The notes beneath the pieces are model-generated. The model did no database searches. It was given only the letters and a program-made list of their open reading frames with translations, and was not told the origin of the DNA. A program made the position numbers and the translations under genes. Shown here in pieces: positions 1 through 8,179 of a stretch of 8,279 bases of DNA. The stretch is from an uncultured Pseudomonas sp. GTDB lineage: Bacteria > Pseudomonadota > Gammaproteobacteria > Pseudomonadales > Pseudomonadaceae. Location: contig NZ_CAMPHN010000186.1 in NCBI RefSeq assembly GCF_946885885.1, forward strand, positions 1 through 8,279, read 5' to 3'. Each line of letters begins with the position of its first letter. Positions within the stretch are counted from its first letter, which is position 1.

Positions 1-241
1 GTTGATCATCATCTTGCTACTTGCGCTAGAGGAGGAGTCCATATACGGGCTACGAGGCTAGGTCGCTGAGCACGGCGTAAACATTAAGACTCGATTGACT
101 TCGAGATATCCGTATCCGCGCACTACACTCTATCCAAGCAACATCCAGAGGCAGCAGAGCAACACCTTCTTACTGAGCGGGTCAGGCACGTCGCCCGAGC
201 AGCCATAACGCTCGACGCCAATCATCAGGATGGATCCGATC
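1..241. other. Upstream region without a convincing gene
   Basis: I see no supported gene here. A short open stretch at 2-61 reads as a hydrophobic run followed by charged residues and a stop. It could be the tail of a gene beginning outside the window, but it is too short to support. A TTGACT hexamer at 95-100 resembles a -35 box but has no good -10 at normal spacing. A GGAGGAG at 31-37 looks like a ribosome binding site but has no ATG, GTG or TTG at a usable distance. Base composition looks less GC-rich than the genes that follow. The promoter of the GTPase-kinase block should lie here, but I cannot place it. Confidence 0.5.
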
Positions 242-907
242 ATGGCCGACCACCAAGCACATGAACGCAAGCTCACGCTCAAGGTGGTCTATTACGGCCC
301 GGCCTTGAGCGGCAAGACCACCAATCTGATGCAACTGCACACCCTGCTCCGCCCACAGCGCAAGGGCGAATTGATGGTCTTGGAAACCCGCGACGATCGC
401 ACGCTGTTCTTCGATGTATTGCCGATCGGCCTGCGCAACGCGGCCGGTATCGACCTGCGCCTGAAGCTCTACACCGTACCCGGCCAAGTGCAGCACGACA
501 GCACCCGCAAGGCGGTGCTGTCGCGTGCGGACGGGGTGATCTTCGTCGCCGACTCGCAGCCGGCGCAGCAGGACAACAACGCCAACGCCTTCGAAAACCT
601 GGCCGATAACCTGCAAAAGCTCGGCATGGACATCGAAACGCTGCCCTTGGTGGTGCAATTCAATAAGCGCGACGTCGCCAATGCGGTACCCGAACAGGAG
701 CTGCAAGCGCGCTGGCGCGACACCCCCTGGGCGCCGCTGTGCATGGCCTCGGCGCTGAGCGGACAAGGCGTGGTCGAGAGCTTTCGCCTGCTGCTCGAAC
801 GCCTATACCCGAAACTGGACGACGAGTACCGGTTAGCCGCCCAGGAAGGCATCAGCGCTGAGGATTTCGTCCGCCGCTTGAGCAGCATGGAGGGCGGCGA
901 TGCTTAG
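242..907 (+). CDS. MglA-like small Ras/Arf-type GTPase
   Basis: A cytoplasmic GTP-binding switch protein of the MglA type, a group known from Myxococcus and Thermus for controlling cell polarity and type IV pilus motility. Visible from the 242 start (221 aa): P-loop GPALSGKTT at about residues 19-27, the MglA-typical DRTLFFD at 52-58 (switch I region), TVPGQV at 78-83 (G3; PGQ in place of the usual D-x-x-G), VIFVADSQ at 99-106, NKRD at 141-144 (G4, guanine recognition) and SAL at 170-172 (G5). A C-terminal tail of about 25 residues extends beyond the G domain. An in-frame ATG at 230 would add four residues, but its only purine-rich stretch (AGGA) runs into the start codon, so I prefer 242. 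The gene overlaps the histidine kinase downstream by 8 bp, so the two are very probably co-translated. No MglB/roadblock GTPase-activating partner is seen nearby. Family is clear; the regulated process is inferred. Confidence 0.92.
   Translation: MADHQAHERKLTLKVVYYGPALSGKTTNLMQLHTLLRPQRKGELMVLETRDDRTLFFDVLPIGLRNAAGIDLRLKLYTVPGQVQHDSTRKAVLSRADGVIFVADSQPAQQDNNANAFENLADNLQKLGMDIETLPLVVQFNKRDVANAVPEQELQARWRDTPWAPLCMASALSGQGVVESFRLLLERLYPKLDDEYRLAAQEGISAEDFVRRLSSMEGGDA
889..894 (+). promoter_or_regulatory. Ribosome binding site of the histidine kinase, inside the GTPase gene
   Basis: GGAGGG lies five bases before the ATG at 900 and within the last codons of the GTPase gene. This supports the 900 start and the 8-bp overlap (ATG at 900, GTPase stop TAG at 905-907), an arrangement typical of translational coupling. 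Confidence 0.7.
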
Positions 908-2030
908 CTTCGAAGACGATCCGCGCCTCGACGATCTGCTCCCCAGGGAGCGCCAAGAGCGCCTGACGCAGCTGCTGCAAGCCTTGCTCGGACACCCGCT
1001 AGCCTTGACCGAGCAAGCCGAAGCTGGCGCCGAAACGGTCGAATTCAACCTGGAAACCCTCGCCTGGCTGAGCTGCCCCAGCGCACCGGCGCTACAGGAG
1101 CCAGCCGCGCGGCTGCTGGAATTCGTGCTGTTCTATGTCGGCAAATACCGCCTGGCGGCTAACCTGCATCACGACACCACCGAGGCCAGTTTCGCCGAAC
1201 TGCAACGCCAACACGCAGAATTGCAGGAGTCCGAGGCCCGCTACCGGGCGCTTTCAGCACAGTTGCAGAGCCGTGTGAACGAGCAGGTCAAGGTCATCGA
1301 AACGACCCAGCAGCAGCTCTACGAGAGCGCCCGTTTGCGCGCCATCGGCCAACTCGCGGCCGGCGTCGCCCACGAGGTCAACAACCCCATCGGCTTTATC
1401 GCCAGCAACCTGCGGGTAGCCGGCGATTACCTCAACGAGCTGGTCGCAAAGCTCCCCGCCGATCCCGCGACGACCGCGCTGCTGGAAGATTTCCGCGCGC
1501 TGCTCAAAGAGTCGGGCAGCGGCACCCAACGCATCGCCACGATAGTCGCCGACCTCAAGACGTTCTCCAATATCGACCAGAACGATTTCGTCTCCTGCGA
1601 CCTCAACGCCCTCGTCGCCAGCACCTGCCACCTGTTGCGAACCGAAAGCCAGCAACCCTTGCAAATCGAGTTACGCCTCGGCGAGCTGCCGCAACTGGCC
1701 GGTTACCCCGCGAAGATATCCCAGGCCACCTACAATGTTCTGGACAATGCCGTAAAAGCCATCGATGCCAACGGCAAGATCCGCATCACCACCAACAGAG
1801 ACGAACTCGGTCAGATTCAAGTGATAGTCGAAGACAACGGCTGCGGGATCGCCGCCGAGCACATGCCTTGCCTGTTCGACCCCTTCTTCACCACCCGTGA
1901 TGTGGGCGCAGGCACTGGCCTGGGTTTAACGGTCGCGCGGGAGATCATGAATGCGCATCAGGGCGAAATCCTGATCAAAAGCCAACCCGGCATAGGAACC
2001 CGCGTGACGCTGCGTTTCCTTTGTCGTTAG
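900..2030 (+). CDS. Soluble sensor histidine kinase
   Basis: A cytoplasmic two-component histidine kinase of 376 aa with no membrane segment or signal peptide. Residues 1-90 match no domain I recognise. About 95-145 is glutamine- and glutamate-rich and should form a coiled coil. The dimerisation/phosphoacceptor helix carries AAGVAHEVNNPIGF, with the probable phosphorylated histidine at H158; the HEVNNP form is typical of NtrB-like or HPK4-type kinases. The ATPase domain has all boxes: N box around N279-N283 (NVLDNAVKAI), G1 EDNGCGI at 311-317, F box FDPFFTT at 326-332 and G2 GAGTGLGL at 336-343. It should therefore be catalytically competent. The N-terminal region presumably receives the input, perhaps from the GTPase made just before it (inference). 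The natural target is the receiver domain of the next gene. The stop codon lies within the 4-bp target duplication of the inserted element that follows. Confidence 0.93.
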   Translation: MLSFEDDPRLDDLLPRERQERLTQLLQALLGHPLALTEQAEAGAETVEFNLETLAWLSCPSAPALQEPAARLLEFVLFYVGKYRLAANLHHDTTEASFAELQRQHAELQESEARYRALSAQLQSRVNEQVKVIETTQQQLYESARLRAIGQLAAGVAHEVNNPIGFIASNLRVAGDYLNELVAKLPADPATTALLEDFRALLKESGSGTQRIATIVADLKTFSNIDQNDFVSCDLNALVASTCHLLRTESQQPLQIELRLGELPQLAGYPAKISQATYNVLDNAVKAIDANGKIRITTNRDELGQIQVIVEDNGCGIAAEHMPCLFDPFFTTRDVGAGTGLGLTVAREIMNAHQGEILIKSQPGIGTRVTLRFLCR

Positions 2031-2219
2031 CAGGCTGTTGAAAAACGTAGGCGAGGCAGGCAAGACAAGGACTAGGCGTCCCCACAAAAACAGCCGAAAA
2101 AGCGACTGGGGTCGCATTCGACTTTACGTGCTGTAAATGAGCATTTTGACTGGGCTCGCACGCGAGGCTGTTTTTAACGCAGTATTGCCAACGCAGGTAG
2201 TTTTTCAACGGCCTGTTAG
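2027..2219 (+). repeat. TTAG target-site duplication flanking the MITE
   Basis: TTAG occurs immediately before the element (2027-2030) and immediately after it (2216-2219). This is what a 4-bp target-site duplication looks like. The left copy supplies the TAG stop of the histidine kinase. The partial copy at the window end is preceded by CTAG, so both fit a YTAR-type target. Members of the IS5 group are known to choose such targets, but no transposase is present to confirm the family. Confidence 0.6.
2031..2215 (+). mobile_element. MITE-like non-autonomous element, complete copy (185 bp)
   Basis: The ends are imperfect inverted repeats: CAGGCTGTTGAAAAAC at 2031-2046 pairs with 2200-2215, matching at 15 of 16 positions. 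A nested inverted repeat lies inside (AAAAACAGCC at 2086-2095, GGCTGTTTTT at 2166-2175). Two small perfect hairpins follow it: GCGAC/GTCGC at 2102-2115 and CTCGC/GCGAG at 2155-2166. No open frame inside resembles a transposase. With the TTAG duplication and a second inverted copy at 8230, this is best read as a miniature inverted-repeat transposable element moved in trans. I recall this sequence type as a recurrent intergenic repeat of Pseudomonas. It separates the histidine kinase from the receiver-ATPase gene; removing it and one TTAG would leave only about 79 bp between them. Its structure could affect read-through transcription or mRNA stability. Confidence 0.8.
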
Positions 2220-2287
2220 CGAACGACGTTCAAGTCGACTTGGTCCAATGCCGCATGGCCTGGTGGAGCAGTGTTCAACAAGCCGCT

Positions 2288-2293
2288 AAGGAG
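2288..2293 (+). promoter_or_regulatory. Ribosome binding site deciding the GTG start of the ATPase fusion
   Basis: AAGGAG lies five bases (ttttc) before the GTG at 2299. It is the best ribosome binding site near the start of this open frame, and it places the GTG about 25 codons before the first beta-strand of the receiver domain. Confidence 0.75.
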
Positions 2294-2298
2294 TTTTC

Positions 2299-4542
2299 GT
2301 GGCAAAACGTTATGCATCGTTGTTCGTGGGCGCGGATACCCCGGGCGAAGGACGCGAAAGCCCTGTCGACAGTCCGTACAGCCTGCTGTTGGTGGATGAC
2401 GAGCCGGGGATACTCGCAGCCCTGCGCCGCGTGCTGCACCGCGAAAACTACCAACTGCACTTCGCCCGCAACGGTGTCGAAGCACTGAAAATTCTCGCCA
2501 GCCAACCGGTCCATCTGATCATCAGCGATTTCATGATGCCGCAGATGAATGGCAGCGAATTGCTCAGTCAGGTGCGCGAACGCTGGCCGGCGACTATCCG
2601 CATCATGCTCACCGGGCACGCCAATACCGAGGCGGTGATGGGCTCGATTCAGGGCGGCGCGGTTTACCGTTTCATCCTCAAGCCGTGGAACGACGACGAC
2701 CTGCGCCTGACCATCGCCCTGGCGCTCGAACAGTACGATTTGAAACAGCGCAACCGCGCGCTCGAGCAGGAAAACCACAAGCAGCACCGCGACCTGGAAA
2801 CCCTGGCCAAGCTGGGCATCACCAACCGCAGCCAATTGGCGATCATGTTGCATAAAAAGGGCCTGCTCAACGCCCAGCAGATCCAGCAGTTGCACAAGGA
2901 AATGCGCACCCACAAAACCCCGGTGATGCGCCAGTTGATGCAGCACGATTGGGTCGACAGCCGCAAGATCTACGACCTGATGCGCAAGGACCTGATGCTC
3001 GAGGAAATCGACCTGCGCGAATTCCAGATCGATCCGCCGCTGCTGTCGTTGGTGCCCCAGGCGGTGTGTACGCGCCAATTGGTGCTGCCGTTGCGGGTGG
3101 TCGACAAGCGCCTGCGCCTGGCGATGGCCGATCCCATGGACCAGGGGTTGATCGAAGAACTCGCATTCATGACCGGCTTCAGCATCCACCCGCTGCTGTG
3201 CGAGCTGACCCAGTTGCAGGACAAGCTCAACGAAATTTTCGGCACGCCCGGCAACCGCCTCGACGACCTGGCGACCATAGTTGGCGACAGCGACCCCTAC
3301 GAAGGCATCGAGATCGTCCTCGACGATGATGGCGAAAGCGAGAACCTGGAGCAGCTGCTCGGCAGTTCCGAAGATCCGCCAGCGATTCGTCTGGTCAACG
3401 CGATCATCCTCGAAGCCCTGCGCCTGGGCGCCAGCGACATCCATATCCACCCGCGGACGAAAAACGTGGTGGTGCGTTATCGCATCGATGGCGTGCTGCA
3501 GGACAAGATCCAGATCCCCAGCAACCTGCTGATGTCGCTGGTCTCGCGCATCAAGGTCATGGCCGAGCTGGATATCACCGAACGGCGGCGCCCGCAGGAC
3601 GGGCGAATCACGGTGAAAACGCCGATGCGCATCGTCGACCTGCGCATTTCCACCCTACCGACCATCAATGGCGAAAAGATCGTGATGCGCGTGCTGGAGC
3701 GCCAGTCGGCCGCGCAATCGCTCGAGGATCTGGGCCTGTCGGCTAACAACCTGCGGCGCCTGTTGCACGTGGTCAACAAACCGCAGGGCATCATCCTCGC
3801 CACCGGTCCCACCGGCAGCGGCAAGACCACCACCCTGTTCGCCCTGCTACAGCACGAGGCTTCGTCGGAAAAGAACTACATCACCATCGAGGACCCGGTG
3901 GAAATCCACGTCGACCTGGCCGGGCAAGTGCCGGTGCGCGAACGCATCGGCTTGAACTTCGCCAGCGTCTTGCGCGCAATTCTGCGTCAGGACCCGGATG
4001 TGATCCTGCTCGGCGAGATCCGCGATCACGAAACCGCCGACGTGGCCTTCCATGCCGCCCTCACCGGCCACCTGGTGTTCTCCACCCTGCACACCAATTC
4101 GGCGGCGGCGACCATCGCCCGGCTGTTCGACCTTGGGCTGAAACCCTATGTGCTGGCCTCCGCCCTTGAGGCGATTGTCGCGCAGCGCCTGGTCCGGCGG
4201 ATCTGCAGCCATTGCCGCGGGCCGGTAAAACCGCCCGAAGAGCGCTTGCGCAGCCTGGGCCCGGAATTTCTCGAAGCCGATATGCAGTTCTTCCAGGGCG
4301 CCGGTTGCAACCATTGCAACCAGGGCTACAAGGGCCGGGTCGGCATCCATGAAGTGCTGACCATGAACGACACGCTGCGCGACGCCATCTCCCAGGGTGC
4401 AGGCGCCACACAACTGCAAAACCTGGCCCGCGAACAAGGCATGACCACCCTGCTCGACGATGCCCGGGAAAAAATCCGTCAAGGCCTGACCACCGTCGAG
4501 GAGGTGCTGCGCCTGCTCGGCCCGCAGGATCTTCAGGATTAG
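2299..4542 (+). CDS. Response regulator receiver fused to a GspE/PilB-type ATPase
   Basis: A 747-aa cytoplasmic motor ATPase with a built-in two-component receiver. Residues 27-145 form the receiver: acidic pair D33-D34, phosphoacceptor D77 in HLIISDFMMPQMNG, T105 in MLTGH and K128 in LKPW, so all key residues are present. About 145-170 is a charged, probably helical linker. About 170-315 resembles the N-terminal GspE/MshEN domain in degenerate form. About 355-740 is the secretion ATPase: Walker A GPTGSGKT at 503-510 (K509), Asp box TIEDPVE near E531-D532, Walker B with E573 in VILLGEIRD, His box HLVFSTLHTN at 591-600, and a zinc-site tetracysteine C636/C639/C670/C673. Tetracysteines mark GspE and PilB assembly ATPases; PilT retraction ATPases lack them. 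Such ATPases drive assembly of type IV pili or type II pseudopili at the inner membrane. Phosphorylation of D77 by the upstream kinase presumably regulates this motor (inference). Pilin, platform and secretin genes are absent from the window. Confidence 0.93.
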   Translation: MAKRYASLFVGADTPGEGRESPVDSPYSLLLVDDEPGILAALRRVLHRENYQLHFARNGVEALKILASQPVHLIISDFMMPQMNGSELLSQVRERWPATIRIMLTGHANTEAVMGSIQGGAVYRFILKPWNDDDLRLTIALALEQYDLKQRNRALEQENHKQHRDLETLAKLGITNRSQLAIMLHKKGLLNAQQIQQLHKEMRTHKTPVMRQLMQHDWVDSRKIYDLMRKDLMLEEIDLREFQIDPPLLSLVPQAVCTRQLVLPLRVVDKRLRLAMADPMDQGLIEELAFMTGFSIHPLLCELTQLQDKLNEIFGTPGNRLDDLATIVGDSDPYEGIEIVLDDDGESENLEQLLGSSEDPPAIRLVNAIILEALRLGASDIHIHPRTKNVVVRYRIDGVLQDKIQIPSNLLMSLVSRIKVMAELDITERRRPQDGRITVKTPMRIVDLRISTLPTINGEKIVMRVLERQSAAQSLEDLGLSANNLRRLLHVVNKPQGIILATGPTGSGKTTTLFALLQHEASSEKNYITIEDPVEIHVDLAGQVPVRERIGLNFASVLRAILRQDPDVILLGEIRDHETADVAFHAALTGHLVFSTLHTNSAAATIARLFDLGLKPYVLASALEAIVAQRLVRRICSHCRGPVKPPEERLRSLGPEFLEADMQFFQGAGCNHCNQGYKGRVGIHEVLTMNDTLRDAISQGAGATQLQNLAREQGMTTLLDDAREKIRQGLTTVEEVLRLLGPQDLQD

Positions 4543-4803
4543 CGCGCTCGCACCCGCCGATCCTGTACAAACGCCTGCAAGAGATCGAACGCGCAGCCTG
4601 AACGGCCTGCATAGAGGGCTCCTCCCTCCGCGCCGAGGGCGGCATCGACGATCTGCAACGGCTGGTCCCGACTTCTACTGACTGATGGACGCGCAAACGG
4701 CAGCCGCCGACCTGCGCCGAGTACCTGCCGAGGTAACGGCGGGTACCGGCGCAACGCATCGTCCGGGCCTGTCAACGCCCAGCATGACCACAATCGCCAG
4801 GCA
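4543..4803. other. Convergent intergenic region with possible gene debris
   Basis: This lies between the ends of the rightward ATPase gene and the leftward TPR gene. No intact gene is supported. One plus-strand frame from 4557 to 4685 reads protein-like on both sides of an in-frame TGA: ILYKRLQEIERAA before it, and GGIDDLQRLVPTSTD near the end before a second stop. It has no plausible start. It may be the decayed tail of a lost gene, but chance is not excluded. GAGGG/CCCTC at 4614-4628 can form a short hairpin, and a stronger one is listed at 4721-4746. Confidence 0.4.
4721..4746. terminator. Strong hairpin between convergent genes
   Basis: GTACCTGCCG at 4721-4730 pairs with CGGCGGGTAC at 4737-4746 over ten positions, one of them a G-T wobble, around the six-base loop AGGTAA. 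Its place between two converging genes suits a shared transcription end point. Neither side has a T-tract, so it is not a textbook intrinsic terminator. It may instead protect mRNA 3' ends. Confidence 0.35.
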
Positions 4804-5532
4804 TCAGCGACTCAGGGTCCGATCCATCAAGGCCAGGAATTTCGGCGGGAACTGGCGACGGTCGATCGTCATCTCGGGGGCGGAGGAGCTTGCTTGTTGC
4901 AAGCTGTCATGGATATCAGAGATCGCTTTACGGTCGGCTTCGCCACTCAGGATATGCAGCGTGTATTGGCTGGCCGCACGATAAATCCACGCCTGGGCGC
5001 GGGCGACATCCGTGGTCAATGTGGCGGGATCGAAGCTGGCAACCTGCTCATAGGCACCATTGAAGTATGCCTCGACGACTTCATGCAGCACGGGGTCCTC
5101 AGCCTCCCCCGCCCCGGGCTTTCGCACATCCGCAACGGGAAGGCTTTGCCCCGCCTGCAGCAAGCTCGCCTCACAATCCGCCCGACCGCGGGCCATGATG
5201 CTGGCATTCTCGCCGGACAGCACCTTGAAACGCGCCTCGTTCGCCCAACTGGCCAATGCCTTATCGCATCGACCCAAGCGGTAATGAGCCAACCCGAGGA
5301 AGTAATGGGGCGTGTAAGGGGCGAAACGCATGCCATACAGCCGAATACGCGGCCGCGAAGCGGGCACTTCGCTGATCACCTCTTCGAGCAAGGGTATCGC
5401 TTTGTCGTAACGCTCCCGCTCGATGTTCAAAATGGCGGTGTCGTAATCTTTTCCCAGCAAAGCCCAAGCAGGGCTCGCAGCCGTCAGCACCAGCAGAATC
5501 AGCCATCGGCATCCGGAATATGAGCGATTCAT
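4804..5532 (-). CDS. Secreted TPR-like protein
   Basis: A 242-aa exported protein. The N-terminus MNRSYSGCRW followed by a hydrophobic run to AWA at 22-24 is a signal peptide with a probable signal peptidase I cut after A24. No lipobox cysteine is present, so it is probably periplasmic and soluble. Helical pairs typical of tetratricopeptide repeats follow: one around residues 29-57 (ERYDKAIPLLEEV) and one around 75-105 (HYFLGLAHYRLGRCDKALAS). The remainder is helical without a domain I recognise. GGAG at 5540-5543 lies about seven bases before the ATG at 5532. An in-frame ATG at 5562 also has a ribosome-binding-like AGGAG but would put ten hydrophilic residues before the signal peptide, so I prefer 5532. 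It lies 49 bp after the kinase-like gene and is probably co-transcribed with it. The shared TPR and envelope character suggests the two products work together; the exact role is unknown. Confidence 0.8.
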   Translation of the reverse strand: MNRSYSGCRWLILLVLTAASPAWALLGKDYDTAILNIERERYDKAIPLLEEVISEVPASRPRIRLYGMRFAPYTPHYFLGLAHYRLGRCDKALASWANEARFKVLSGENASIMARGRADCEASLLQAGQSLPVADVRKPGAGEAEDPVLHEVVEAYFNGAYEQVASFDPATLTTDVARAQAWIYRAASQYTLHILSGEADRKAISDIHDSLQQASSSAPEMTIDRRQFPPKFLALMDRTLSR

Positions 5533-5581
5533 ACGCCCTCCCGTCCTCACGTCTGCGGCCATACCCGCCTCTCCTGAAATA

Positions 5582-8179
5582 TTATTGTTCGCCGCGCAAG
5601 TTCACACTGACGCTGGTGCTCTGGCCCGATCGTACCTTGGCATGTACTTCGCGCGTTTGCCCACTATTGGGGTTGTGCAGCTCAATCGAATAATCTCCGG
5701 CCGGAACCGACAATCGAAGCGGCGTCGTGGCATCCGCTTCCAGTTGGACAGGCTGTCCATCCGCCTTGCGCACCGAACTGATGTAGCCCCAGGGAACCGC
5801 GTTGATTGCAATATAACCATCGACCAGCGCGTCGCTGGAAGAGCGTTGTTCGATGATCGAGTTCAAGGTCAATTTACGCCGGCCCAATTCGGCATCGTTG
5901 GCGATATGTTCGCGGGCCTGCTCCAGCAGCACGCCGGCGGCGTCGTAGCGAAGTTGCGCCATCAGGCTGTCCACGTCGTTCAACACGGCGGCGCGCAGTT
6001 TTTTCAAGCCCGCCTGGATGACAGGCTGCGCCTCGGGGTATGCCTGCGCACGTTGATACAGTGTCCAGGCGCTGCTCGCCTGTGGGTTGAAATAGTTGCC
6101 GCGGCGCAAGGCGAGTTCGGCCTCATCGAGCAGTTTACGAACGGCGGCGGATTGTTCATGGGCGCCCTGCGCGACTCGGGCGTCCAGCTCAGCGAGCTCG
6201 GCACTCGTTGGCAAGACGCTATGCCCCAGCGCCAGGTAGGCCCTGGCCGACGCCCACTCCTTGCGTTCGACGGCCTGGCGGGTGCGCGCCAAGGCGACCT
6301 GCCCCAAAGCGTCCGCACGTAGACGCGCGGCAGTGTCGCTCGGCTCCAAGCGCAGAACTTGCAGATACGCTTTGAGCGCTCGCGCCAAAGCTGCTGGCCG
6401 ATCGATGCCGGCCTCGTCCGCCGCGCTCGCTTCCTCGCGCAATTGCGCCAGTTGCTTCCTATGTGCTTCGACCCCGAGCAACCTTCGGTAATCCGCCTCC
6501 AGGTTGGCCAGCGCGATGCCGGAATGCGCTATTTCGCGCAAGCGGTCCAAGGTTTCCTTGGCCTGTTGCAAGTGCCCGCTCTGCAGTTCGGTCCTCGCCT
6601 GCCCGGCCAGAATACCCTCCAAGCGCAATCGCCGTTCCTCTACGCCAGCGTCTTCTGCGGCCAAGTCCTGCGCCTGCCGCAGCAGCATGATTGCAGCATC
6701 GACTTGCCCGGCTGCCGGGGACGCCCCGACTAACCGAGCATCGATACCCGCAAAGAGCCCGTTGAGCCGCTCCCGCTCTTCCGCTTCGCGACGCGCCTGG
6801 GCCAGAGCGCCCGATAACGCCACGAGCTGCTGATTGTCAGGAAAGGCTCGAATGGCTCGACTCAACGCCAGGTCCGCTTCATCCAGTTGCCCCTGCCGAA
6901 GCACCTCCTGCACGACCTCGGCCGCGCCTTCCTCGATCCGTGCCGAGATAGCGGCAAGCTCGGTGTTGCCAGGGTCTGCGATACGCAAAGTGCGTAATGT
7001 ATCCAGGGCATTGTCGTCGGCCGGCAACAGCAGCTTGCCCTCCTTGAGCTGAACGTCGGCATGCTGAACGAGCTTCTGAATCAGCCCCAGTTGCGGCTCC
7101 GGGCGAGTCTGCGACCAGATAAGCAAGGCCGAGCCGCAGACCAAGATCAACCCCATGGACAACAGCAATGCATTCCAGCGCCCGCTACCGGCGGGCGCAT
7201 CCCAACGGCTGGCGTCGACCCCTTCCATAGGTGTGCCCACGCCGGTTAACGCTGGCCGCTGCGACAGCGCCGACAGGGGCGTCACAAGACGTTCGAAGGC
7301 GGGATCGCCAATATGCCGATCCGCCTCGATTCTTGTGGCGAGACGGGGGGAGCGTATTACCAGGGCGTTCAGCTGATCCAACAGCATGGCCACGCTGGGC
7401 CGCTGCGCTGGCTGCTCGACCAGCATCAGCGCCAGGAGCGACTCCAGATCGGCGAGCCCTTCGGGCAAAGCCGAGAGCCGCGCGAGCTGCCCGGAGCGAG
7501 TGCGGTTCGGCTTCTCGCCAGTCAACAGATAATGCAACAACAGGCCAAGGCTATAGATATCGGCCCGCGCATCCGGTGACCGGCTGGAAAAACACTCGGG
7601 CGCGCAATAATCGAGGGCATCCCCGCCGCCTCGATGCGTACCGGCGATCCAGGTCATGCCGAGATCGAGCAAAACGGCTTCACCGTTCGCACGTATGCCG
7701 ATCCGATCCGGATGAAGAGCCGTATGGAAAACCCCCGCCCGGTGCAGCCCGCCGACTGCCGACGTCGTTTCCGCGAACAGTCGTAGACGCTCGCGCAGCG
7801 ACAAGCTGGAAAGCCAATCCGAATCGCCGGGCCACTTACCCGTCAAAGGTTCCGCGCAGCGGCTGTCCTTCCCCTTCCCCACCTGCACATCGCGTAACAG
7901 ATTCGGGTGACGGGCCTGACGCAACAATTCGGTTTCCCGGGAGAAACGCCCCTGCGGCAGGCCACGCCCGCGGCCAGGCAGGCATAGCGTAAACAGCGAG
8001 CCTTGCGCCTCGGGTTGCCAGGCAACCAGGCGGCTGATGAATCGCTTATCGGCGGCTTGCTCACTCAAAGCGACATTCCAGAATCGAGATGGTGGGGTAG
8101 GCTCCGCCGTGGAAAGGTACAAGGCATCCGTCGAATACAGCGGGCAGGGGGATCGATCGAGAAGCCTTGGCTCCGGCAA
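5582..8179 (-). CDS. Membrane-anchored Ser/Thr kinase-like protein (probable pseudokinase) with TPR-like and PEGA-like regions
   Basis: An 865-aa protein with a cytoplasmic Hanks-type kinase fold (about residues 30-275), one membrane segment (about 336-355) and a long periplasmic part of TPR-like helices (about 365-780) ending in a PEGA-like beta domain (about 787-865, NAVPWG, TTPLRLSVPAGDYSIEL). Kinase landmarks are HPNLL at 91-95, HTALHPDRI at 152-160 where HRDLKPENI is expected, DLG at 172-174 for DFG, APE at 193-195, ADIYSLG at 206-212 and QRPS at 259-262. The catalytic Asp is Ala154, the loop Asn is Arg159, and no clear VAIK lysine or glycine loop is present, so phosphotransfer is doubtful. 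Such proteins could sense or scaffold at the envelope. The start is uncertain: TTG at 8179 is the first usable start codon after an in-frame stop and lacks a well-spaced ribosome binding site, while a GTG at 8192 in another frame has a very good one. See the findings for a possible frameshift. Confidence 0.82.
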   Translation of the reverse strand: MPEPRLLDRSPCPLYSTDALYLSTAEPTPPSRFWNVALSEQAADKRFISRLVAWQPEAQGSLFTLCLPGRGRGLPQGRFSRETELLRQARHPNLLRDVQVGKGKDSRCAEPLTGKWPGDSDWLSSLSLRERLRLFAETTSAVGGLHRAGVFHTALHPDRIGIRANGEAVLLDLGMTWIAGTHRGGGDALDYCAPECFSSRSPDARADIYSLGLLLHYLLTGEKPNRTRSGQLARLSALPEGLADLESLLALMLVEQPAQRPSVAMLLDQLNALVIRSPRLATRIEADRHIGDPAFERLVTPLSALSQRPALTGVGTPMEGVDASRWDAPAGSGRWNALLLSMGLILVCGSALLIWSQTRPEPQLGLIQKLVQHADVQLKEGKLLLPADDNALDTLRTLRIADPGNTELAAISARIEEGAAEVVQEVLRQGQLDEADLALSRAIRAFPDNQQLVALSGALAQARREAEERERLNGLFAGIDARLVGASPAAGQVDAAIMLLRQAQDLAAEDAGVEERRLRLEGILAGQARTELQSGHLQQAKETLDRLREIAHSGIALANLEADYRRLLGVEAHRKQLAQLREEASAADEAGIDRPAALARALKAYLQVLRLEPSDTAARLRADALGQVALARTRQAVERKEWASARAYLALGHSVLPTSAELAELDARVAQGAHEQSAAVRKLLDEAELALRRGNYFNPQASSAWTLYQRAQAYPEAQPVIQAGLKKLRAAVLNDVDSLMAQLRYDAAGVLLEQAREHIANDAELGRRKLTLNSIIEQRSSSDALVDGYIAINAVPWGYISSVRKADGQPVQLEADATTPLRLSVPAGDYSIELHNPNSGQTREVHAKVRSGQSTSVSVNLRGEQ

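What the first reader, a model, noticed from the sequence alone, without database searches (positions are those of the whole stretch)
242..4542. MglA GTPase, histidine kinase and receiver-PilB/GspE fusion as one control module
Three switch types lie in one block: a GTPase of the family that controls pilus motors in Myxococcus, a complete soluble histidine kinase, and an assembly ATPase with its own intact receiver domain (D33, D34, D77, T105, K128). Two-component control of a pilus or secretion motor normally runs through transcription or separate CheY-like proteins; here phosphorylation could act on the motor itself, with GTPase state as a second input. The pairing is inferred from gene order and intact motifs.
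Basis: partly seen in the sequence, partly recalled or inferred. Interest (0 to 1): 0.72.

Follow-up and report, generated by a model that had tools for sequence, protein, structure and literature searches.

The report
Phosphorylation-ready pilus motor with MglA GTPase
A set of neighbouring bacterial genes encodes a pilus-type motor with a built-in phosphorylation switch, a signalling kinase and a small GTPase; the set stays together in many distant bacteria, which suggests that cells may switch a motor directly rather than through gene expression.

Summary
The three genes are real and intact: an MglA-type GTPase (242-907), a soluble HEVNNP histidine kinase (900-2030) and a receiver-PilB/GspE fusion (2299-4542). 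Receiver residues D33, D77, T105 and K128 are invariant in 75 of 75 aligned fusions and the ATPase motifs are intact. The motor is a separate ATPase subfamily, has no platform gene near it in 6 of 6 genomes and coexists with other full-length PilB/GspE-type ATPases. The GTPase has MglA group 1 motifs, yet 11 of 13 module genomes have no MglB-type protein. In many relatives the triad is the core of a larger cluster with a second kinase, a REC-HD-GYP protein and further receivers, so which kinase feeds the motor is open. Direct phospho-control of the motor is likely but untested. Nine library searches showed no listing that describes the module.

The parts
242..907 (+). MglA-type small GTPase, 221 aa; P-loop, R53, T54, TVPGQ with Q82, NKRD
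   Evidence: start; motif conservation
900..2030 (+). soluble histidine kinase, 376 aa; small alpha-beta N-terminal domain without Pfam match, long helix, HisKA with H158, HATPase_c
2299..4542 (+). receiver - MshEN-type domain - T2SSE ATPase fusion, 747 aa (GTG start)
2386..2715 (+). receiver domain of the fusion (residues 30-139), D33, D34, D77, T105, K128
   Evidence: coordinates computed from residue numbers
2692..2817 (+). predicted helix 132-173 linking receiver and MshEN-type bundle (last part of low confidence)
3370..4512 (+). T2SSE ATPase domain (residues 358-738) with Walker A, Walker B, His box and four-cysteine site
2024..2222 (.). inverted-repeat element (23-nt arms, 199 bp), not part of the module: an insertion between kinase and fusion

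Best explanation
The window holds the core of a widespread signalling module that controls a dedicated pilus-type extension ATPase. Shown: three intact genes, conserved order, invariant phosphorylation and ATPase chemistry, no MglB-type protein in 11 of 13 module genomes, and no platform gene near the motor in 6 of 6 genomes. Inferred: the soluble kinase senses a cytoplasmic state, possibly the nucleotide state of the GTPase bound at its unassigned N-terminal domain, and phosphorylates D77 of the receiver on the motor. Phosphorylation is passed through helix 132-173 to the MshEN-type ring, where other motors of this class receive c-di-GMP, and so switches the ATPase. Lacking its own platform, the motor would engage the cell's ordinary type IVa pilus platform beside or instead of PilB. 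The GTPase most likely sets where in the cell this happens, as MglA does through SgmX in Myxococcus.
For: Order: 66 of 80 loci; GTPase-led sample 26 of 30 against 0 of 10 controls; Gammaproteobacteria 6 of 7 close GTPases, the centre genome included. Chemistry: D33/D77/T105/K128 75 of 75 and E531, E573, H591, H598 and four cysteines 75 of 75; kinase H158 and N283 74 of 74; GTPase R53 and T54 70 of 70, Q82 69 of 70. c-di-GMP contacts changed at 6 of 6 key positions in the window and never all kept in 75. Motor without nearby platform gene, separate clade with support 100, other T2SSE ATPases in 6 of 6 genomes, PilM in 13 of 13. No roadblock protein in 11 of 13. Adjacent kinase and fusion have the highest corrected divergence correlation of six pairs (0.49, n 21).
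Against: No phosphotransfer, binding or phenotype is known to me. Other intact receivers and a second kinase share the cluster in many relatives, and their kinase-contacting helices are alike. The 0.49 has no significance test, and the second kinase also correlates best with the fusion (0.36). The cluster is dispersed or interrupted in some genomes (L037, L051, L060, L066, L075, L080, L141, L143-L145). PilM is common (9 of 14 control genomes), so its presence is weak support. In this window an insertion element separates kinase and fusion. The window's own genome is not held.
Confidence: 0.5

Rival explanations
1. Branched relay: the motor's receiver is fed mainly by the second kinase or by both kinases, and the kinase beside the GTPase serves mainly the REC-HD-GYP protein or a stand-alone receiver; the motor is one of several outputs.
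For: Of 66 triads, 46 have a REC-HD-GYP gene and 53 a further receiver in the held stretch. Companion receivers keep D and K (97 of 98 REC-HD-GYP-like rows with one gap, 40 of 40 small ones) and share about 52% of the kinase-contacting helix with the fusion's receiver.
Against: Kinase and fusion are next to each other even where the others are missing nearby (window, L037, L091). Corrected divergence is most correlated for the adjacent kinase and the fusion.
Confidence: 0.25
2. The fusion is not a pilus motor but a signalling ATPase that joins, blocks or competes with PilB or GspE hexamers, or reports their state.
For: No platform gene near it in 6 of 6 genomes; separate clade; below the curated cut-offs for PilB and GspE. 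PilB has been proposed to act as a signalling protein in Myxococcus (PMC5544727, search listing only).
Against: ATPase motifs and zinc cysteines are fully conserved, which a mere adaptor would not need.
Confidence: 0.15
3. Genes co-transcribed for a common physiological state, without direct contact among the three proteins.
For: No interaction is tested; other two-component genes come and go in the cluster.
Against: Fixed order and orientation in distant lineages, overlapping or nearly touching GTPase and kinase genes in 36 of 68 loci measured, parallel divergence (shared ancestry can explain this too).
Confidence: 0.08

Closest known systems
MglA/MglB with SgmX and PilB in Myxococcus xanthus (PMC7519303, passages)
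   Same: An MglA-family GTPase works upstream of a pilus extension ATPase; receiver proteins take part in that polarity system (RomR, FrzS; PMC4316618 passages)
   Different: There MglA acts through the TPR protein SgmX with MglB as GAP, and PilB has no receiver; here no MglB-type protein in 11 of 13 genomes, the receiver is fused to the motor, and a kinase lies between the two genes
Conservons / actinobacterial G protein systems (PMC4316618 passages; PMC13343842 abstract)
   Same: Histidine kinase and MglA-family GTPase encoded together
   Different: Conservons have a roadblock protein, CvnC, a group 2 GTPase and no response regulator; here group 1 motifs, no roadblock neighbour seen and a motor with a receiver
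Receiver proteins that act on PilB: PilG and FimX in Pseudomonas aeruginosa, PATAN-bearing regulators in cyanobacteria (PMC10519157 and PMC11656802, passages)
   Same: Two-component signals reach a pilus motor without transcription
   Different: There the receiver is a separate protein, and FimX's receiver lacks the phospho-accepting aspartate; here an intact receiver is part of the motor
MshE-type extension ATPases gated by c-di-GMP (PMC5013675, section 12 and passages)
   Same: Same MshEN-type and T2SSE architecture; the paper notes that MshEN can be associated with receivers
   Different: All six key c-di-GMP contacts are changed in the window's protein; a receiver is present

Membership tests
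MglA family, group 1 (definition from PMC4316618 section 15) | Arginine beside the G2 threonine and TVPGQ in G3, NKxD in G4 | tested here: met
   R53 and T54 70 of 70, TVPGQ with Q82 69 of 70, N141, K142 and D144 70 of 70; MglA chains are the best solved relatives
MglA family, group 1 | Coupled MglB GAP (usual, not obligatory: 390 of 449 in PMC4316618 section 14) | tested here: not met
   No roadblock protein in 11 of 13 module genomes; in G255 it is on the same contig about 400 kb away, in G005 the best one is beside a canonical mglA. Orphan members exist in the family, so this makes it an orphan, not a non-member
Two-component histidine kinases | Phospho-accepting His, N box, G boxes | tested here: met
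   H158, E159, N161, P163 and N283 74 of 74; G314, G316, G338, G340, G342 73 of 74, the other row a gap
Receiver domains capable of phosphorylation | Acid pair, phospho-accepting Asp, Thr/Ser, Lys | tested here: met
   D33, D77, T105, K128 75 of 75; D34 74 of 75
Receiver domains capable of phosphorylation | Accepts phosphate from the adjacent kinase | not testable with these tools
   needs phosphotransfer assay
PilB/GspE-type assembly ATPases (T2SSE) | Walker A, Asp box, Walker B, His box, zinc cysteines | tested here: met
   G503-K509-T510, E531, E573, H591, H598, C636, C639, C670, C673 75 of 75 (S507 74 of 75); T2SSE 442 bits
PilB or GspE equivalog (NCBIfam) | Score above the curated cut-off | tested here: not met
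   574.3 against 675.65 for PilB, 549.7 against 630.25 for GspE; separate clade
c-di-GMP-binding MshEN domain | R, G and Q of both RLG...Q motifs | tested here: not met
   Window has Q, A, M and P, M, D at the six positions; best relatives keep 4 of 6. Binding with an imperfect motif is not excluded (PMC5013675 discussion passage)
Conservon / actinobacterial G protein system | Kinase + MglB + CvnC + group 2 GTPase | tested here: not met
   Group 1 motifs; no roadblock gene in 11 of 13 genomes. CvnC was not searched for

The most novel reading that the evidence does not exclude
A new class of signalling machine: a small GTPase and a soluble kinase form one sensor whose output is direct phosphorylation of an extension motor, so that the fused receiver replaces c-di-GMP as the gate of the motor ring, and the kinase's unassigned N-terminal domain replaces MglB as the partner that reads or sets the GTPase.
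Probability: 0.25. Interest if true: 0.82.

Novelty: new variant of a known kind. Interest (0 to 1): 0.64.

Why it matters
How signals reach pilus motors is an open question: the routes described in what I read go through transcription, c-di-GMP or separate receiver proteins. A conserved motor that carries its own intact receiver, beside a kinase and an MglA GTPase, makes direct phospho-control of a motor testable with a few purified proteins. It also offers a group 1 MglA that seems to work without MglB. The fusion occurs in culturable genera such as Pseudomonas, Stutzerimonas, Marinobacter, Janthinobacterium and Massilia (for Stutzerimonas and Marinobacter only the fusion, not the triad, was seen).

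Tried and rejected
Chance neighbours: rejected by the GTPase-led sample and the canonical mglA controls. Phage or plasmid cargo: no match among phages at megablast sensitivity; among the 5000 best plasmid records none covers 80% of the fusion, and none of the 20 rows listed aligns to the receiver part. Defence system: no PADLOC family for the GTPase and one weak ATP-domain hit for the kinase; the fusion was not given to that search. RNA element in the window: none at gathering score. Promoters and terminators in 1-5000: no more than in shuffles. Known domain at the kinase N-terminus: no coherent Pfam match there in 58 members at E 0.1; the structure rows cover mainly residues 134-376, so the N-terminal fold is barely tested and may be known. 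Kinase-receiver pairing from divergence: too weak to decide. Uniform loss of the HD-GYP site: first suspected from Pseudomonas, then rejected, since many companions in other lineages keep the HD pair. The fusion's model has modest confidence (mean pLDDT 76.6, pTM 0.48, residues 166-176 under 50); only its secondary structure is used. In the GTPase tree the ten canonical MglAs split off with support 0.99, but the split of module GTPases (with L087) from all others has only 0.69.

Full report
What is there. The window (fusion 97% identical to a protein named from uncultured Pseudomonas; next nearest P. chengduensis at 86%) encodes on the + strand an MglA-type GTPase (242-907), a soluble histidine kinase (900-2030) and a 747-residue fusion of receiver, MshEN-type domain and T2SSE ATPase (2299-4542). 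The GTPase stop and kinase start overlap by 8 nt, which fits translational coupling; in 36 of 68 relatives measured the two genes overlap or lie within 10 nt (starts chosen by script). The downstream genes on the - strand do not belong: none of 80 loci matches the 252-aa protein, and one locus (L009) has a weak match to the protein-kinase-like protein.

Is it more than chance? A scan of genome contigs with the fusion gave 174 relatives, of which the best 80 were kept. The ordered triad GTPase-kinase-fusion is present in 66 of the 80. The 14 others: contigs cut near the gene (L036, L055, L061), proteins without the receiver (L078, L079), a gene broken over two frames (L071), one in several pieces (L080), and clusters that are rearranged, interrupted or without GTPase nearby (L051, L052, L053, L058, L060, L066, L075). 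As that sample starts from the fusion, I also started from the GTPase. In 146 Desulfuromonadia genomes 142 have an MglA-family match, with a gap in score between 38 places at 210 bits or more and the next at 174. I fetched 30 of the 38 (one left out because its contig ends about 420 bases away, and the seven lowest) and 10 of the lower group as controls. Of the 30, 28 have a kinase next and 26 have kinase then fusion; L145 has kinase next and the fusion about 4.7 kb on; L141 has a kinase next but no fusion in the stretch; L143 and L144 have neither next to the GTPase. Of the 10 controls none has a kinase match and none a receiver fusion; one (L157) has a partial ATPase match 5.7 kb away. The two samples overlap: equal contig lengths show that, for example, L143 and L053, and L144 and L058, are the same contigs, with GTPase and fusion apart on one contig. 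In 274 Gammaproteobacteria 9 have a GTPase match, 7 of them close; 6 of the 7 (centre genome included) continue with kinase and start of the fusion, and L087, a partial GTPase, does not. In the genus sample 3 of 149 have it, centre included, all with the triad. So the module is rare and patchy in Pseudomonas, yet stays together.

Constraint. Short sequences were dropped before alignment (6 of 80 fusions, 2 of 71 GTPases, none of 73 kinases) and the window was added. In 75 fusions D33, D77, T105 and K128 never vary and D34 varies once; Walker A varies once at S507; E531, E573, H591, H598 and four cysteines never vary. In 74 kinases H158 and N283 never vary; in 70 GTPases R53 and T54 never vary and Q82 varies once. 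Distances of the three proteins correlate at 0.86-0.91 in 66 shared sets (window included), against permutation maxima of 0.11-0.18; common descent of whole clusters explains this as well as contact does.

The wider cluster. In close relatives the order is second kinase (PAS-bearing in L001), REC-HD-GYP, stand-alone receiver, GTPase, kinase, fusion; deltaproteobacterial and Nitrospirota members have other receivers upstream and one after the fusion. Of 66 triads, 46 have a REC-HD-GYP gene and 53 a further receiver in the held stretch. The HD pair is lost in the five Pseudomonas rows but kept in many others. Window 1-241 holds no such receiver tail. L037 also lacks these genes nearby, though its genome has the REC-HD-GYP relative on another contig. 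The triad is the constant core, the rest a variable shell.

The motor. All six genomes examined have further full-length T2SSE ATPases besides the fusion, plus shorter PilT-like matches; which is PilB or GspE I judged from length and neighbouring platform matches. Platform (T2SSF) matches never lie near the fusion: none on its contig in five genomes, about 27 kb away in the sixth. In a tree of 36 ATPases the 14 fusions form one clade with support 100, apart from the PilB and GspE rows, with weak support (63) for its sister. The fusion scores below the curated cut-offs for PilB and GspE. It is thus a separate subfamily without its own platform gene nearby. PilM is found in 13 of 13 module genomes; as it is also in 9 of 14 control genomes, this is weak support.

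Inputs. The c-di-GMP contacts of MshEN domains (two RLG...Q motifs; PMC5013675, section 12 and passages) are changed at all six key positions in the window (Q, A, M, P, M, D), and no aligned relative keeps all six: of 75, 11 keep none, 30 one, 10 two, 22 three, 2 four. Positions were placed by the paper's spacing and by the gapless alignment of this stretch to a solved PilB. I read this as loss of c-di-GMP gating in the Pseudomonas lineage, with phosphorylation in its place; binding is untested, and the paper warns that a perfect motif may not be needed. The model shows the receiver followed by helix 132-173 into the MshEN bundle, its end at low confidence. The kinase model has a small alpha-beta domain, a long helix and a standard kinase core; its N-terminal domain has no coherent Pfam match. 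The GTPase has group 1 motifs as defined in PMC4316618 (section 15), but 11 of 13 module genomes have no roadblock match, and in G005 the best one lies beside a canonical MglA. Something else may take the place of MglB; the kinase N-terminus is my candidate, by inference only.

Who feeds the motor? The cluster's receivers are nearly all chemically intact and alike in the helix that contacts kinases (about 52% identity to the fusion's; which helix does so is recalled). Of six kinase-receiver pairs, divergence corrected for the GTPase is most correlated for adjacent kinase and fusion (0.49), then second kinase and fusion (0.36), adjacent kinase and REC-HD-GYP (0.34), second kinase and REC-HD-GYP (0.19), and near zero for the small receiver (n 21, no significance test).

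Known or new? The MglA survey PMC4316618 (abstract, sections 13-15, passages) and the PilB review PMC11656802 (passages) do not describe this module in what I read; the survey says that group 1 neighbourhoods vary widely. PMC5013675 says that MshEN is found with receivers, so that pairing is known in general. PMC10519157, PMC10333796, PMC3164672 and PMC2864759 (passages), PMC7519303 (passages) and PMC13343842 (abstract) do not mention it in what I saw. Nine searches of the open library showed no title or abstract that describes it; I did not open every listed paper, and subscription papers and preprints are not held. I file it as a new variant of a known kind: known parts in a conserved arrangement that I found described nowhere.

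Noticed in passing
window 2024-2222: A 199-bp element with 23-nt inverted ends (87% complementary) lies between kinase and fusion; relatives at 70-79% identity lie in unannotated stretches of two Pseudomonas plasmid records, and a partial one in a Halomonas record. It looks like a miniature mobile element and may uncouple the two genes in this strain.
   Followed up: partly
window 5582-8179 (-): Protein-kinase-like protein of 865 aa with a long helical, repeat-like C-terminal part; the stretch HTALHPDRIG stands where an HRD motif is expected and has no aspartate there, so it may be a pseudokinase (motif knowledge recalled; Pkinase 42.9 bits).
   Followed up: no
window 4804-5562 (-): 252-aa protein with a weak TPR match below the Pfam cut-off, beside the kinase-like gene; absent from all 80 related loci.
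   Followed up: no
L001 4349-5668 and companions in other loci: The companion REC-HD-GYP protein has lost the HD pair in the five Pseudomonas rows but keeps it in many beta-, delta- and Nitrospirota members: a phosphodiesterase decaying into something else within one cluster.
   Followed up: partly
L164, L168, L171, L173: A second orphan T2SSE ATPase clade (open frames of 596-681 aa) in four of the six genomes, weakly sister to the receiver fusions (support 63).
   Followed up: no
L088, L089: Two gammaproteobacterial open frames of 488-493 aa whose first part is MglA-like (29-34% identity to the window's GTPase), so a larger protein with a GTPase domain.
   Followed up: no
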